From a virus, in the IMG/VR virus record IMGVR_UViG_3300030110_001052, positions 1 through 25,305 of that record: a stretch of 25,305 bases of DNA; one strand, 5' to 3'. The notes beneath the pieces are model-generated. The model made no database searches. It was not told the DNA's origin and saw only the letters and a list, made by a program, of their open reading frames with translations. The number at the start of each line of letters is the position of its first letter. The first letter of the stretch is position 1. Shown piece after piece: positions 3 through 7,864 of the stretch. The translations under genes and the position numbers were made by a program.

Positions 3-449
3 AAGATAGATATTCAATGCAAGGAATGTAAAGAACACTTCACTCCAAAAACAAGGAAACAAACTAAGTATTGTTCAAGTAAATGCCGTTTTAATAATTG
101 GGCTAAACAACCTAAAAACAAACTTAATAAGGCAGTGCAAGATGCAGTAACAAAAGGACTAAAACCTAAAATCTGTATTCGCAAAAGTAAGTATCTTAAT
201 GGCTTAGATTTTACTATGGATGAATTAAGAATCCATTTAGAAAACCAATTTGATGATTGGATGAATTGGAATAATCACGGCCTTTGGCATATAGACCACA
301 TTAAGCCAGTGGCCTCTTTTAATTTTACATCTATGGAGGATGAAGATTTCAAGAAGTGTTGGGCCTTAGAAAACTTACAGCCACTTAAAGACACAGAAAA
401 TATGAGAAAGAATCATTATTTTTACAAAGCAAAGGAGTTGGAAGTATGA
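3..449 (+). CDS. HNH endonuclease with N-terminal zinc finger (5' end cut by window)
   Basis: The reading frame is open to the left edge, so the true start lies outside; a GTG at 135 is only an internal codon. The visible N-terminal part has a four-cysteine finger (C-x2-C-x14-C-x3-C, visible residues 6-28). The C-terminal half carries an HNH signature: WHIDHIKP near positions 285-309, followed by ENLQPL and a final N-x2-K segment, the usual DH...N...N/H metal-binding beta-beta-alpha core. HNH proteins cut DNA; in viruses they act as homing endonucleases, in packaging, or in host DNA attack. The next gene overlaps by ATGA, so it belongs to the rightward early operon. A free-standing homing-type nuclease is possible. 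The family call is firm; the role is not. Confidence 0.85.
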   Translation, partial: KIDIQCKECKEHFTPKTRKQTKYCSSKCRFNNWAKQPKNKLNKAVQDAVTKGLKPKICIRKSKYLNGLDFTMDELRIHLENQFDDWMNWNNHGLWHIDHIKPVASFNFTSMEDEDFKKCWALENLQPLKDTENMRKNHYFYKAKELEV

Positions 450-584: not shown

Positions 585-803
585 ATGAATAAGCATTGTG
601 AAAGATGGACATTTAAAATAATAGACGAAATGGATAGTACCTTTTCAGCACTTACAATTAGAGAAAAATTGATTGAAAAACATGGAACTAAATATACAGT
701 TTCCTCGACATCAATAGGTCAATTTTTACGAAGGCATTGTGATGTAATAGGAAAGAAAAAAGATAGGTTCATTTACAAAAAGAGGGAAAGGAATGAAAAC
801 TAA
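585..803 (+). CDS. Small winged-helix-like DNA-binding protein, 72 aa
   Basis: The start was placed at the ATG at 585 because AAGGAGAG (569-576) lies at suitable spacing; a longer in-frame extension back to 492 would run through the preceding zinc-ribbon gene. The fold looks helical: a helix (ERWTFKIIDEM), an FSALTIREKL segment, then TSIGQFLRRHCDVIG and a short basic beta-like tail (RFIYKKR). This pattern resembles a winged helix-turn-helix, in which the TSIGQFLRR stretch would be the recognition helix. It could be an early transcription regulator, but this is a shape-based guess with no family recognised. Confidence 0.6.
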   Translation: MNKHCERWTFKIIDEMDSTFSALTIREKLIEKHGTKYTVSSTSIGQFLRRHCDVIGKKKDRFIYKKRERNEN

Positions 804-966
804 ATATGTAACAGTTAAAGTATCGTATGATACAGAAGAGACTTGGGATATTACTTTACAAGAAATAAAGGAACTATTTCAAATGATGAATAACTTGAAG
901 CGTAATGCTATCATTCAAGATATAGAGCAAGGAGCGAATATCAATGATGATGGACAAAACGAATGA
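793..966 (+). CDS. Hypothetical protein, 57 aa
   Basis: The ATG at 793 lies 11 nt before the end of the previous gene and is preceded by a GGGAAAGGA purine-rich site. The protein begins with a beta-strand-like stretch (KYVTVKVSYD) followed by an amphipathic helix (LQEIKELFQMMNNLKR) and an acidic tail. No family is recognised. Tight packing on both sides (the next gene begins at 944) supports it as a real gene. Confidence 0.6.
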   Translation: MKTKYVTVKVSYDTEETWDITLQEIKELFQMMNNLKRNAIIQDIEQGANINDDGQNE

Positions 967-1075
967 GTTATTAGAAGAATTGCTGGCTATGATAGCAAAG
1001 AGTAACAAGATATTGATGATGGTAAATATCGTAAACATAGCAACCATTATAACAATAGTGACGGTGATATTATGA
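944..1075 (+). CDS. Single-pass membrane micro-protein, 43 aa
   Basis: The gene starts at the first of three consecutive ATG codons (944, 947, 950) after AAGGAG (929-934), and ends by ATGA overlap with the next gene. The N-terminal half is charged and helical (KTNELLEELLAMIAKSNK); residues about 24-43 are an uninterrupted run of Ile, Val, Met, Leu, Thr and Ala that would span a membrane. There is no signal peptidase site. The function is unknown; it may be a virus-encoded membrane anchor or a lysis/superinfection factor, but the sequence does not decide. It is paired physically with the coiled-coil gene downstream. Confidence 0.6.
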   Translation: MMMDKTNELLEELLAMIAKSNKILMMVNIVNIATIITIVTVIL

Positions 1076-1353
1076 ATGAAGAAATAAAAAGATTAACAAT
1101 GGAAAACGAAGCCTTATCAGAAAGAACAAACAGTCTAATTGGGAAATTAGAATCTGTAATGGAAACTATTACCTCTTTAGAAAATGAAATAGAAGAGTTA
1201 AGTAATAAGTTATTTGAACTAGAAGAACAACGGGGAGCATCTTCTGATATAACAGACACTCTTAGAATCAACGAGATTGATGCTTGGACTATTAACCATC
1301 AGACTATATCTGATAAGATAGAAGAAAGAATACTTGCTAAATTGAAGGTGTGA
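1072..1353 (+). CDS. Coiled-coil protein, 93 aa
   Basis: Residues about 1-55 form a clear heptad-like coiled coil rich in Glu, Leu, Asn and Ser (ENEALSERTNSL, ENEIEELSNKLFELEEQ), followed by a more ordinary helical C terminus (ISDKIEERILAKLKV). It would oligomerise. The ATG overlaps the stop of the membrane micro-protein upstream, so the two are likely translationally coupled and may work as a pair. Nothing identifies a catalytic role. Antisense open frames over this gene are shadows. Confidence 0.7.
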   Translation: MNEEIKRLTMENEALSERTNSLIGKLESVMETITSLENEIEELSNKLFELEEQRGASSDITDTLRINEIDAWTINHQTISDKIEERILAKLKV

Positions 1354-1355
1354 TT

Positions 1356-1565
1356 ATGCCCTTTACTTATGATAGGTCTTGGGCTGATATACACGCTATG
1401 CTTGAAAAGGCAGAAAGAAAACAAAACATGCACTATACTAAAATGCAGAGTCCTAATAAGAAAGACCGCATATATCACATGAGAAACTACAAGGCATTGG
1501 AAGGAGTAATCAAAGCCTTAAAGTGGACTCTTGGAGATAAAAATATAGAACACCCATTGGAGTGA
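1356..1565 (+). CDS. Hypothetical protein, 69 aa
   Basis: The start was chosen at ATG 1356. The GTG six bases upstream is part of the ribosome binding site GGTGTGAT, which also contains the stop codon of the preceding gene. The protein is basic and helical with several His, Tyr and Lys residues and no recognised family. It directly precedes the PolB fragment, but it shows no polymerase motif A or B and no intein block, so it is not the missing part of that polymerase. Confidence 0.6.
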   Translation: MPFTYDRSWADIHAMLEKAERKQNMHYTKMQSPNKKDRIYHMRNYKALEGVIKALKWTLGDKNIEHPLE

Positions 1566-1570
1566 TATTT

Positions 1571-2452
1571 ATGAAAGTAGTTTACGGACATACAGATTCA
1601 ATCTATGTTCAAATAGATTCAGTGGAAACTGCTGAAATTGCTATTAAAGAAATAGAAGCATCTGTCAGAGAACACTTTCCTAATGTTATGGGGTTAGACG
1701 AACACCCCGTTCAATTAGAGTTTGAAAAGTATTTTTCAGCATTGGGTGTTGGAACCACTAAGAATAGAAATGCTGGTTTAGTATCTTGGGAGGATGGAGA
1801 ATGGTTAGATAAACCTAAGTTTACTATGACCGGCTTTACTGCTAAAAGAGTAAGCGAAACTAAACTTGCAAAATCAGTACAAACAGAAGTGCTAACTATG
1901 TGGGTGAATCAATGTTCTCTTCATGAGATAAATAAATATCTGCATTCTATCTATTGTAATGTCAGAGAAGGTAAACTAGAACCTAGTGAAGTCATTAAAA
2001 GAAGCAGACTAAGGGCTAACAGGTTTACTGTAAAATGTCCCGAATGTAAGACTAAATACTCTATAAGAGAAAACTTCAAATGGTGTGGTAAATGTGGTAA
2101 AGATAGTAAATACTTTACAACTCTAGAAGGTAAGAAACCTACCTTTGGTTCAGGTATTGCAGGTATCTTATATGGATGGCAAAAGAAGAATATGGAGTTT
2201 GATGACTCTTACTTATTTGTAAAAGTAAAACATGTGAATGATTCTTTTAGAAATCCATTAACACACGAAATGAAACAAGTCGAATATGTTTCAGGAACAA
2301 CCTATGCAGACTTCGACGGCTATCTAATTGATTGGGACCACTACGCCCAAGAGGTAGTAAGAAAGGCAGAACCTATTTACAAGGCTATGGATTGGGATAT
2401 ATCAAGCATAAGAACCGGTAAAATACAGAAAAAATTAGACGATTGGTGGTAA
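1571..2452 (+). CDS. C-terminal fragment of split family B DNA polymerase (motif C onward), 293 aa
   Basis: The protein starts almost directly with polymerase motif C, read here as YGHTDS (residues 5-10). It continues as a PolB palm/thumb: QLEFEKYF (48-55), a KxRxAGL block (64-70) matching the KKRYAGL region, and GFTAKRVSETKLAKSVQ (88-104) matching the conserved thumb helix. A CPEC...CGKC knuckle (Cys156, 159, 172, 175) adds a zinc site. The start is ATG 1571 after GGAGTGAT; a GTG at 1562 is part of that site. The exonuclease domain and motifs A and B are absent, so a partner subunit must supply them, probably encoded outside the window. The first Asp of YGDTDS is His; the second, the main metal ligand in PolB enzymes, is kept (Asp9). 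It is likely active only in complex with the partner. Confidence 0.85.
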   Translation: MKVVYGHTDSIYVQIDSVETAEIAIKEIEASVREHFPNVMGLDEHPVQLEFEKYFSALGVGTTKNRNAGLVSWEDGEWLDKPKFTMTGFTAKRVSETKLAKSVQTEVLTMWVNQCSLHEINKYLHSIYCNVREGKLEPSEVIKRSRLRANRFTVKCPECKTKYSIRENFKWCGKCGKDSKYFTTLEGKKPTFGSGIAGILYGWQKKNMEFDDSYLFVKVKHVNDSFRNPLTHEMKQVEYVSGTTYADFDGYLIDWDHYAQEVVRKAEPIYKAMDWDISSIRTGKIQKKLDDWW

Positions 2453-3492: not shown

Positions 3493-3863
3493 ATGACGAT
3501 ATAATTAAACAAAAGGTACTGGCTAGAGATTGGACTTTTACGGAAATATCTAATCTAAAACAAACTATCAACTTACTCTGTAATGAGATTTATTCTGAAT
3601 CTAAACTAGGTGAAAGATTTGCCTTAGTTAGAGATGTAAGGATTAATGAAAGTTATGTAGGACATACCTTTGAAGATATAATGAGAAAAGCAATAAATAC
3701 AAAACTATCTGGCGAAATTGCTGGTGTAATAAGTAATATGTTGGATTCAGCAACAGTAAATTTTGGAGGAAATAAAAATGAAATATCCGAGGGAAGTATG
3801 GGCGGGGAGCCACATAAAGAACGCACCACAAATGAAACGAAAAGTAGTCTCATCGAGGAATGA
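3489..3863 (+). CDS. Hypothetical protein, 124 aa, overlapping the primase gene
   Basis: The start was placed at ATG 3489, directly overlapping the previous stop and preceded by GAGGGGGA. The protein is largely helical: TFTEISNLKQTINLLCNEIY, then GERFALVRDVRINESYVGHTFEDIMRKAI and LSGEIAGVISNML. The last 25-30 residues are Gly, Ser, Glu, Thr-rich and lie in the 86-nt out-of-frame overlap with the primase gene; that disordered-looking tail fits a region under dual coding constraint. No family is recognised. Its position just before the primase suggests a replication accessory, which is inference only. Confidence 0.65.
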   Translation: MNDDIIKQKVLARDWTFTEISNLKQTINLLCNEIYSESKLGERFALVRDVRINESYVGHTFEDIMRKAINTKLSGEIAGVISNMLDSATVNFGGNKNEISEGSMGGEPHKERTTNETKSSLIEE

Positions 3864-4818
3864 ATATGCTAAGTTTGTTAACGCTCAAAATAATAGGACA
3901 AATGTTTATACAACGGTGTATGACTTTGAACATTTTTCAGAGACAGCAAAAATAGATTCATCAGTAATACTAGATAGAATATTTTTAGATTTTGACGGAC
4001 ATGATAATGATTTAGAATACGCATGGAGAGATTTAAAAATGGTAATGCAAAGGGTTTTAGAAAGAGATTGGAGATACACCATGTTCTTTTCTGGAAGAGG
4101 ATTCCATTTGTTTTTATTCGGTAAACCTGCCGAAAGTATCAGAAGTATTCAAACCTTCTTTAGAGATATTAAAGCATACATGAGAGCGAATGTTGCTGGT
4201 AAAATGACGCTTGATGATAGAGTAGGTCAAACCACTAGATTGAGAAGAGTACCCAATACCGTGAATATGTCCTCTAATTATTATGGCAATCCACTATACT
4301 GCATCCCATTACAGAAGGAAGACCTTAGCCATAGTTTAGATTCTATACTAGAGTTAGCAACCAAACCAAGGCATTTACGCTTTGAAATGGGTGGCAATAT
4401 CGAGGTAACTTTTCCTGATGTACCCCCTATCGAAGCCGTTGAAGGTGAAATTTCTGTCCCAAAATATACAGGAAAACTCCCAATATTACCTTGTTTACAC
4501 AATGCTATCATGACGGAGAATCCTTCACATATTGCTAGAGCATACTTAGTTTCTTGGTATAGAGACTTGTTAACAGGAAGGCGACCTTTAAATTCATTAA
4601 AAGAAAAACAAGAAGTATTAGACTTAATTGTAAAAGAAATAAAACAATTGGTTGAATCTAACGATGAAGTATGGTTAGATTGGGATGAACACACAACTAG
4701 AAAACATGCTAAGTTTACAGTATTTGGTAATTATAAAACTCCTTTCTGTAATAAGTTAATTAGTGAAGGTTACTGTGTTGGTAAGTGCTGGCGTTATCCA
4801 GATTATTTAGGTGAGTAA
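3778..4818 (+). CDS. Archaeo-eukaryotic primase, PriS catalytic domain fused to PriL-like Fe-S domain, 346 aa
   Basis: The primase makes primers for viral DNA replication. The N-terminal AEP domain shows the metal motif LDFDG (Asp71, Asp73), motif II SGRGFH (105-110) and a third acidic site in LDDRVG (146-147) followed by RLRRVPNTVN. The C-terminal part has the PriL-type cluster: Cys239 in LPCL, a SHIAR segment (250-254), then Cys324, Cys333 and Cys337 in PFC...GYCVGKC. Four cysteines with this spacing fit the 4Fe-4S domain of the archaeal/eukaryotic large primase subunit. The start is ATG 3778 after GGAGGA (3765-3770); a TTG at 3763 lies inside that site. A one-chain PriS-PriL arrangement is known from the Thermococcus nautilus plasmid pTN2 primase. 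AEP assignment is firm; the PriL part is a motif-level call. Confidence 0.88.
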   Translation: MKYPREVWAGSHIKNAPQMKRKVVSSRNEYAKFVNAQNNRTNVYTTVYDFEHFSETAKIDSSVILDRIFLDFDGHDNDLEYAWRDLKMVMQRVLERDWRYTMFFSGRGFHLFLFGKPAESIRSIQTFFRDIKAYMRANVAGKMTLDDRVGQTTRLRRVPNTVNMSSNYYGNPLYCIPLQKEDLSHSLDSILELATKPRHLRFEMGGNIEVTFPDVPPIEAVEGEISVPKYTGKLPILPCLHNAIMTENPSHIARAYLVSWYRDLLTGRRPLNSLKEKQEVLDLIVKEIKQLVESNDEVWLDWDEHTTRKHAKFTVFGNYKTPFCNKLISEGYCVGKCWRYPDYLGE

Positions 4819-4819
4819 T

Positions 4820-5515
4820 ATGTTAGTAATAGATAGCAGAGAAAAAGAAGGTTCTAGATTAGTTAAATTAGTACAGTCTAAATGTAAAACTTTAGGTATT
4901 AAAACAGAAAAGAAATGGCTTGAGATTGGAGACTATGTTTTTGATGATGTATGCTTTGAAGCAAAATCAACAACTGATTTCTTAGGCTCAGTTATGAGTA
5001 AAAGAATATGGACTCAAATAGATAACATGGATAGACACTACAAAACCAATGTAGTAATCATCTATGGTACTCTAGAAGAAGCGATTTATAATGTTAAAAG
5101 ACATGGTAAATCCAACATTCAAGAACCTGCAAGAAGTATAATGTTAAATAATAAGTTTCTAGGTGGTATCGGAAGAATTACTTTAGATACTGATGTAAAG
5201 GCTTTTTGGGTTCCAACAGAAGAAGAAGCGGCACTAATTATAAGTGCCATTTGTAAAATGAAACCTATTGAAAGAGATGTAATTAGACCTGAGATATTCA
5301 AAAGAATAACAACGGATGATTTAAGATTAGATGTATTAACTAGCATCAAAGGTGTTTCCTTAAAGAAGGCTAAAGCCTTTATTAAAGAATATGGAAGCAT
5401 TATGGAAATAGGAGAGCAAACAGTCCATGAATTGTGTTACATGGATGGTATCGGTGAGAAAACCGCAAAAAGAATATTAGACACATTAAATAGTGAAAAG
5501 AAGGTGAAAATATGA
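4820..5515 (+). CDS. XPF/ERCC4-family structure-specific nuclease with tandem HhH, 231 aa
   Basis: The N-terminal ERCC4 domain has the signature VIDSREKEG (Asp5, Arg7, Glu8), GDY (37-39), FEAKST (Glu47, Lys49) and the following TDFLGSV. The C terminus has two helix-hairpin-helix motifs: IKGVSLKKAKAF (176-187) and MDGIGEKTAKRI (208-219). This is the layout of archaeal XPF and of the Hef/Mus81 nuclease half, which cut flaps, forks and 3'-branched structures; the helicase part of Hef is absent. Function in processing viral replication or recombination intermediates is inferred. The start is ATG 4820 after GGTGA (4810-4814), which overlaps the primase stop region; an in-frame GTG at 4811 belongs to the binding site. 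Confidence 0.93.
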   Translation: MLVIDSREKEGSRLVKLVQSKCKTLGIKTEKKWLEIGDYVFDDVCFEAKSTTDFLGSVMSKRIWTQIDNMDRHYKTNVVIIYGTLEEAIYNVKRHGKSNIQEPARSIMLNNKFLGGIGRITLDTDVKAFWVPTEEEAALIISAICKMKPIERDVIRPEIFKRITTDDLRLDVLTSIKGVSLKKAKAFIKEYGSIMEIGEQTVHELCYMDGIGEKTAKRILDTLNSEKKVKI

Positions 5516-7041: not shown

Positions 7042-7265
7042 AATGGGAAAATACATATGTAGTTTTTGATGTAACAAAAGGACCAAAAGTAATTATAGAG
7101 ACTTTAGACACTTATGGCGATGAAGGATGGGAATGTTGTTCTATGCTAAGTATAGCAGGTGCAAACATCGTTGCTTTCTTAAAAAGAAAGATTGGCGGCC
7201 ATGAAGAAGAAGTTGACGAAGATGCTAAGAAAATCTCTAAACTTTGGGCTAATGGTAGTGCGTGA
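7038..7265 (+). CDS. DUF4177-like small protein, 75 aa
   Basis: The gene overlaps the helicase stop (ATGA) after GGTGAGAAG. The pattern WENTYVVFD... LDTYGDEGWECCSML... IVAFLKRK matches the DUF4177-type small beta-alpha-beta proteins, in which a helix ending in GxEGWE is followed by a strand ending in FLKR. The function of that family is unknown. The C-terminal 20 residues are acidic and helical (GHEEEVDEDAKKISKLW). Being translated between the helicase and exonuclease suggests a replication accessory role, but this is context only. Confidence 0.6.
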   Translation: MKWENTYVVFDVTKGPKVIIETLDTYGDEGWECCSMLSIAGANIVAFLKRKIGGHEEEVDEDAKKISKLWANGSA

Positions 7266-7270
7266 TTATA

Positions 7271-7864
7271 ATGTCGGTTTTGGCATTAGATATTGAAACC
7301 AAGAATATGTCTCATGACATAGGTGGTTTCGGTAATACTCACATGTTTCAAGTATCAACCGTTGCTACTTGGGATGGTAATAATGGTACTGTTTATGTCG
7401 ATGAACCTTTAGATACATTTGCTAAATCAGGTCATGTAGTTAAATCATTAGGTGAACTAAAATATGATTTAGATAATCATTTACAAAAAGGCGGAGTATT
7501 GTTAGGACATAACATAGCCGCATTTGATTTACCTATATTAAGAGACTCTATGGATATTTATTGCATACATAAATATCTAGGAGATGAAAAATATATTGAT
7601 ACAAGTAAATATATTTTAAAGGAACACGGTGAAAGGATTCAACTAAAGAATCTAGTAAAGTGTTCCTTAGATGATGCTAAACTAATGGAAAGCGCAGATG
7701 CACCTAAATTATGGAAAATGGGCCAATACGATGAAGTCGTTGAATATTGTATGAAAGATACTCAACTAGTATATGACCTTTGGAAGTATGGACAGGATAA
7801 AGGTATTGTTAAAGCGTTCTCTATTGACAAAGAAGAGTTTATAGAATTAGGAGTGGAATGGTAA
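7271..7864 (+). CDS. DEDDy 3'-5' exonuclease (PolB-proofreading type), stand-alone, 197 aa
   Basis: The three exonuclease motifs are intact: Exo I ALDIET (Asp7, Glu9), Exo II GHNIAAFDLPIL (Asn81, Asp86) and Exo III EYCMKDTQLVYDL (Tyr159, Asp163). This is the DEDDy layout of PolB proofreading domains and of the related stand-alone family (COG3298/PF13482/PF10108). There is no polymerase domain. Because the same operon has a PolB fragment that lacks its exonuclease domain, it may proofread in trans for the split polymerase, or act as a separate nuclease. The start was set at ATG 7271; an upstream in-frame GTG at 7262 is part of a GTGATT binding site that includes the stop of the preceding gene. 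Confidence 0.88.
   Translation: MSVLALDIETKNMSHDIGGFGNTHMFQVSTVATWDGNNGTVYVDEPLDTFAKSGHVVKSLGELKYDLDNHLQKGGVLLGHNIAAFDLPILRDSMDIYCIHKYLGDEKYIDTSKYILKEHGERIQLKNLVKCSLDDAKLMESADAPKLWKMGQYDEVVEYCMKDTQLVYDLWKYGQDKGIVKAFSIDKEEFIELGVEW

What the first reader, a model, noticed from the sequence alone, without database searches (positions are those of the whole stretch)
1571..2452. Family B DNA polymerase split exactly at motif C
The fragment starts four residues before YG(H/D)TDS, and carries the rest of palm and thumb but neither motif A or B nor exonuclease. This is the same break as in Methanothermobacter thermautotrophicus PolB, whose C-terminal subunit also begins at motif C, and it is the common pol-c intein site. 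An old intein insertion or split intein may have left the gene broken, or the split may have arisen independently.
Basis: partly seen in the sequence, partly recalled or inferred. Interest (0 to 1): 0.72.

Follow-up and report, generated by a model that had tools for sequence, protein, structure and literature searches.

The report
Two-gene DNA polymerase of marine archaeal viruses
This gene is the back half of a virus's own DNA-copying enzyme, which one large group of ocean archaeal viruses always makes as two separate proteins cut at exactly the same point, while their nearest relatives still make it in one piece.

Summary
ORF 1571-2452 is a stand-alone C-terminal family B DNA polymerase half starting MKVV-YGHTDS. 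It is not decay. In 212 related viral loci (169 distinct) the same half follows, on the same strand, a ~550-aa gene with Exo I-III, motif A and motif B. All 18 longest contigs searched carry both halves and no intact PolB. The window's N-half is missing because the contig ends inside the interval between the two genes. Both halves are under strong purifying selection (dN/dS 0.13 and 0.07). The split happened once, in one magrovirus clade (100/99 support), in a 3-residue turn before the motif C strand, with no residues lost. Two neighbouring magrovirus-like clades keep an intact PolB with uninterrupted YGHTDS. The break lies six residues upstream of the pol-c intein site, no intein remnant exists, and in four lineages the genes overlap by ATGA. 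So an intein origin is unsupported. Most likely mechanism: a non-covalent two-subunit polymerase. A mobile HNH gene lies in the gap. The split itself is already labelled (PolB-NTD/CTD) in ICTV's Aoguangviridae profile. The intact sisters, single origin and a thumb zinc ribbon found only in the split clade seem undescribed in the papers I could read.

The parts
1571..2452 (+). PolB-C: C-terminal half of a family B DNA polymerase (motif C, rest of palm, thumb), 293 aa
   Evidence: PF00136 positions 222-354 only; 212 relatives with the same start; dN/dS 0.07 across close relatives
1583..1600 (+). motif C YGHTDS; D9 of PolB-C is the retained catalytic Asp
   Evidence: invariant in alignments A2 and A3
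2036..2095 (+). zinc-ribbon-like insertion in the thumb, C156xxC159...C172xxC175
   Evidence: four Cys invariant among 27 near relatives, present with varied spacing in the split clade, absent from intact PolBs
2426..2449 (+). C-terminal PIP-box-like QKKLDDWW
   Evidence: Qxx[LMIF]xx[WFY][WFY] in 68 of 72 lineages; a sliding-clamp-like gene precedes PolB-N in relatives
3..449 (+). HNH endonuclease (5' end cut by the contig end), lying in the polB-N/polB-C interval
   Evidence: PHROG endonuclease VII; 93.5% identical DNA over 247 bp next to a PolB-N only 58% identical to L002's
585..803 (+). small gene of the polB-N/polB-C interval (winged-helix-like by eye)
   Evidence: cluster 2 of interval genes
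793..966 (+). small gene of the interval
   Evidence: cluster 1, found between the halves in 32 lineages
1072..1353 (+). small coiled-coil-like gene of the interval
   Evidence: cluster 0, found between the halves in 35 lineages
1350..1565 (+). small gene directly before PolB-C
   Evidence: cluster 26; 73% identical to the gene after PolB-N in L002
2454..3359 (+). PD-(D/E)XK nuclease, the conserved neighbour downstream of PolB in split and intact viruses
   Evidence: PF12705; synteny
3763..4818 (+). archaeo-eukaryotic primase-like protein
   Evidence: PHROG primase; synteny
4811..5515 (+). ERCC4/XPF-type nuclease with HhH
   Evidence: PF02732 and PF14520
7262..7864 (+). separate DEDD 3'-5' exonuclease
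   Evidence: PHROG 403 and PF13482

Best explanation
The gene encodes the small subunit of a two-subunit family B replicase. The large subunit (PolB-N, ~550 aa: proofreading exonuclease, motif A, fingers, motif B) and the small subunit (PolB-C, ~295 aa: motif C, second half of palm, thumb, PIP box) are made separately. They associate non-covalently, so that the catalytic Asp of motif A and that of motif C meet in one composite palm. The split arose once in one magrovirus clade by a clean break in the turn between the last helix of PolB-N and the motif C strand, without an intein. The gap then became a landing site for small genes and homing-type endonucleases. SHOWN: partner, tiling, single origin, conserved residues, selection. 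INFERRED: non-covalent assembly, activity, zinc binding, clamp binding, and an initial frame-shifting or stop/restart event.
For: Both halves in all 18 long relatives, none intact. 212 split loci, all with motif C at the start of the second gene. N and C tile the intact sister polymerase with 0-1 residue overlap. Exo I, motif A, finger R/K and motif B are kept in 72 of 72 lineages, Exo II in 68 and Exo III in 66 by the patterns used. dN/dS is 0.13 (N) and 0.07 (C), and N and C distances correlate at r = 0.86. The window's genes upstream of PolB-C are the family members that lie between the halves elsewhere. The split clade is monophyletic at 100/99 with an intact sister group. Four lineages have the two genes overlapping by ATGA in different frames. 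AlphaFold of PolB-C alone gives a confident thumb but pLDDT < 50 for most of residues 1-94, the palm half; the intact sister is modelled as a whole PolB (pLDDT 86) in which the break falls in the turn at residues 557-559, between helix 533-556 and strand 560-565. No Rfam intron.
Against: The window's own PolB-N is off the contig, so its presence here is inferred from relatives. No biochemistry. The low palm confidence of PolB-C alone may partly reflect the shallow alignment (27 sequences). Motif B has A or S instead of the usual N, and motif C has H instead of D, although the intact magrovirus PolBs share the H. The ancestral state of the gap (overlapping or spaced) is not resolved.
Confidence: 0.87

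Rival explanations
1. The split is the relic of a pol-c intein (lost intein, or a trans-splicing split intein as in Nanoarchaeum equitans).
For: The break is near motif C, where pol-c inteins insert; Makarova et al. 2014 (PMC4104785) suggest imprecise intein loss for Methanobacteriales.
Against: The pol-c site is YGD|TDS, six residues downstream of this break. No IntN or IntC sequence on either half in 212 loci: N ends 12-17 residues after SITASARE and C starts at M-x-VVYGHTDS. No intein at the site in the intact PolBs found.
Confidence: 0.06
2. Insertion of a homing endonuclease gene (HNH or GIY-YIG) broke the polymerase gene, as proposed for some T4-like phages; the endonuclease was later replaced or lost.
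For: HNH genes in the gap in the window, L036-038, L061 and L355; a GIY-YIG gene in L165/L042. The window and L355 share 93.5% identical HNH DNA on divergent polymerases. HNH or LAGLIDADG genes also adjoin intact polB in HVTV-1 and HGTV-1.
Against: Endonucleases occur in few lineages and belong to different families, so they look like later arrivals; in four lineages nothing lies between the halves. As with phages 25 and 44RR (PMC2988022), invasion after the split cannot be told from cause.
Confidence: 0.3
3. Decaying duplicate or assembly artefact.
For: The window holds only one half.
Against: 212 loci from many metagenomes, conserved start, low dN/dS, partner gene in each.
Confidence: 0.01
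4. The two reading frames are joined at the protein or RNA level (frameshifting in the ATGA type, intron or bypass in the spaced type).
For: The frames overlap by 4 nt in four lineages.
Against: Most lineages have 79-2819 nt with several same-strand genes between the halves and no Rfam intron. PolB-C keeps its own start codon in 211 of 212 loci.
Confidence: 0.03

Closest known systems
Aoguangviridae / Magrovirales (Poseidoniales virus YSH_150918), PolB-NTD/CTD
   Same: The ICTV profile's figure legend lists separate PolB-NTD and PolB-CTD in a 92-kb marine archaeal virus with clamp, clamp loader, primase and exonuclease (PMC10768690)
   Different: The profile does not say where the break is, how it arose, or that other magrovirus-like groups keep PolB intact; the record itself was not in the collections here
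Methanothermobacter thermautotrophicus PolB1/PolB2 (Kelman et al. 1999)
   Same: archaeal family B polymerase made as two polypeptides
   Different: cellular PolB3-type; its break position was not checked here; attributed by others to intein loss (PMC4104785)
Nanoarchaeum equitans PolB
   Same: two genes, break near motif C
   Different: carries intein halves that trans-splice at YGD|TDS; none here
T4-like phages 25 and 44RR gp43A/gp43B
   Same: viral PolB in two genes; the phage 25 halves co-purify and are active; a homing endonuclease lies in the gap (PMC2988022)
   Different: bacteriophages; the break position was not compared here
Intact PolB of magrovirus-like group Y (L331, L290, L303) and of Druskaviridae (HVTV-1)
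   Same: collinear domains and same gene neighbourhood; group Y shares the YGHTDS motif and PIP box
   Different: one polypeptide; no zinc ribbon in the thumb

Membership tests
Family B DNA polymerase | Exo I-III, motifs A, B and C with catalytic Asp in A and C | tested here: met
   C in the window; Exo, A and B in PolB-N of relatives; not seen in the window's own contig, which ends first
Family B DNA polymerase | PolB fold | tested here: met
   intact sister model matches KOD/Tgo PolBs, E 4e-46; PolB-C alone matches P. abyssi PolB, E 1.5e-5, with low TM-score
Two-subunit (split) PolB, like M. thermautotrophicus or phage 25 | both halves encoded, neither redundant | tested here: met
   18 of 18 long contigs, 212 loci
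Two-subunit (split) PolB, like M. thermautotrophicus or phage 25 | halves associate and polymerise DNA | not testable with these tools
   needs expression
Split intein / trans-spliced polymerase | IntN at the end of N, IntC at the start of C, break at YGD|TDS | tested here: not met
Magrovirales (Aoguangviridae-like) | marine, ~90-100 kb tailed virus with PolB, clamp, clamp loader and primase, replication and virion genes in opposite directions | tested here: met
   (via relatives for size, clamp and loader); formal family assignment not tested, as the reference genomes were not in the collections

The most novel reading that the evidence does not exclude
A permanently heterodimeric viral replicase that arose by a bare gene break (no intein, no endonuclease) in the palm domain, was fixed together with a new thumb zinc ribbon that helps hold the halves together, and has never re-fused even where the two genes touch by 4 nt.
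Probability: 0.3. Interest if true: 0.6.

Novelty: new member of a known kind. Interest (0 to 1): 0.42.

Why it matters
It gives a natural series for studying how a one-piece enzyme becomes an obligate complex: intact outgroup, intact sister clade, and a split clade with one origin and dozens of lineages. The break runs through the palm between the catalytic motifs, so activity of the mixed halves would be a direct test of composite active-site assembly. It also warns that marine surveys using PolB as a magrovirus marker see two genes in one clade and one in others.

Tried and rejected
Intein remnant (no sequence on either side). Intact second PolB (none in 18 long contigs). RNA intron in the gap (Rfam found nothing). 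Host link through genome contigs: only one misbinned contig in a Maricaulis MAG (L269) and one distant bacterial match. ICTV reference genomes ON649702 and OR863078 are not in the collections. Philosof 2017 and Prabhu 2025 are not in the paper library. The M. thermautotrophicus break position could not be checked. A fold of the N+C complex was not possible with the single-chain predictor.

Full report
OBSERVATION. The ORF at 1562..2452 (+) has an ATG at 1571 and encodes 293 aa starting MKVVYGHTDSIYVQ. Pfam PF00136 matches only its C-terminal part (positions 222-354 of 453, E 4.9e-8), and PHROG 262 only positions 574-722 of 856. It is the only PF00136 match in the 25,597-base virus record, whose left end is the window's left end.

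PARTNER. A first scan of IMG/VR gave 80 relatives (59-75% identity). In the 18 longest contigs searched (46-185 kb) every one has two PF00136 genes: a ~550-aa gene matching positions ~35-200 and the ~295-aa gene matching from ~217 on. None has an intact one. In 78 of the 80 first loci the N-half lies upstream on the same strand; the other two loci are cut too short. Two more scans brought the count to 212 split loci, 169 distinct pairs. The second gene starts at the same place in all of them, with ATG in 202, GTG in 6, TTG in 3 and ATC in 1. PolB-N ends 12-17 residues after the conserved SITASARE helix. Aligned to intact relatives, the halves tile with 0-1 residue overlap.

WINDOW. The window lacks PolB-N because its contig begins inside the interval between the halves. 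Its genes upstream of PolB-C fall into clusters whose other members lie between PolB-N and PolB-C elsewhere (clusters 0, 1, 2, 13 and 26). Another contig (L355) ends, in mirror image, at a PolB-N followed by an HNH gene whose DNA is 93.5% identical to the window's HNH over 247 bp, although its PolB-N is only 58% identical to that of L002, a close relative of the window. A near-identical mobile gene in different viruses would break assemblies at that point (inference).

FUNCTION. Exo I, motif A, finger R/K and motif B are kept in 72 of 72 lineages, Exo II in 68 and Exo III in 66 by the patterns used. Motif C is invariant. PolB-C ends in a PIP-box-like QxxLxxW[WF] in 68 of 72 lineages. A sliding-clamp-like protein (profile match to beta clamps, E 3.8e-6) and a clamp loader (PHROG 168) are encoded upstream in relatives. 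Median dN/dS is 0.13 for N and 0.07 for C over 152 close pairs, and N and C distances correlate at r = 0.86. This is a working gene pair, not a remnant. The AlphaFold model of PolB-C alone is confident in the thumb and below 50 pLDDT for residues 1-15 and 31-94, as expected if the palm forms only with the partner, although the alignment was shallow. The intact sister (L331) is predicted as a whole PolB (pLDDT 86; best PDB match E 4e-46). In it the break falls in a three-residue turn (557-559) between helix 533-556 and the motif C strand 560-565.

ORIGIN. A DNA-pattern scan for short-spaced or fused forms found intact magrovirus-like PolBs: group Y (813-822 aa, ~43% identical to N and ~31% to C) and group X (mostly 771-801 aa, ~30%), all with uninterrupted YGHTDS. 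In trees of 94 and 48 rows the split forms are one clade (SH-aLRT 100; careful tree 100/99), Y is their sister, X lies outside and haloviruses are the outgroup. Gene order around PolB is the same in split and intact viruses. In four separate lineages PolB-N and PolB-C overlap by ATGA in different frames; in the others 79-2819 bp of small same-strand genes intervene. The gap content varies even among viruses at least 88% identical. Whether the overlapping state is ancestral is not resolved.

INTEIN AND HOMING. The pol-c intein site is YGD|TDS (PMC549080), six residues downstream of this break. No intein residues occur on either half, and no intein was found at the site in the intact relatives. 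HNH or GIY-YIG genes sit in the gap in a few lineages, and HNH or LAGLIDADG genes adjoin intact polB in HVTV-1 and HGTV-1. As with T4-like phages 25 and 44RR (PMC2988022), a homing endonuclease could be cause or later guest. The variety and rarity here favour guest.

ZINC RIBBON. The split clade has a four-cysteine insertion in the thumb (invariant C156, C159, C172, C175 among near relatives; other spacings in deeper lineages), absent from the intact PolBs aligned here. It may stabilise PolB-C or its contact with PolB-N (inference).

KNOWN OR NEW. The ICTV Aoguangviridae profile lists PolB-NTD/CTD in its figure legend (PMC10768690), so the two-gene state is already annotated. Split PolBs are known in M. 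thermautotrophicus, N. equitans and T4-like phages. The exact break, single origin, intact sister groups, overlapping genes and thumb ribbon were not described in the papers I could read, but key papers (Philosof 2017, Zhou 2023, Prabhu 2025) were not available.

Noticed in passing
window 2036-2095; alignments A2, A3: Four-cysteine zinc-ribbon-like insertion in the PolB thumb, found throughout the split clade and absent from the intact PolBs aligned.
   Followed up: partly
window 3-449; L355:135-560: HNH gene 93.5% identical in DNA over 247 bp between viruses with divergent polymerases: a recently moved element.
   Followed up: partly
window 7262-7864: A separate DEDD 3'-5' exonuclease is encoded although PolB-N of relatives has its own Exo I-III.
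   Followed up: no
L002:6237-7028: Divergent sliding clamp directly upstream of PolB-N, matching bacterial beta clamps by profile but no PHROG or Pfam family.
   Followed up: partly
all magrovirus-type PolBs found: Motif C is YGHTDS and motif B of the split clade has A or S for the usual N (KRLMASFYG).
   Followed up: no
record of L006 (184,733 bp): Contig carries two PolB-N and two PolB-C genes, perhaps two genomes or a concatemer.
   Followed up: no
L269: Magrovirus-type contig binned into a Maricaulis MAG in a genome database (likely contamination).
   Followed up: no
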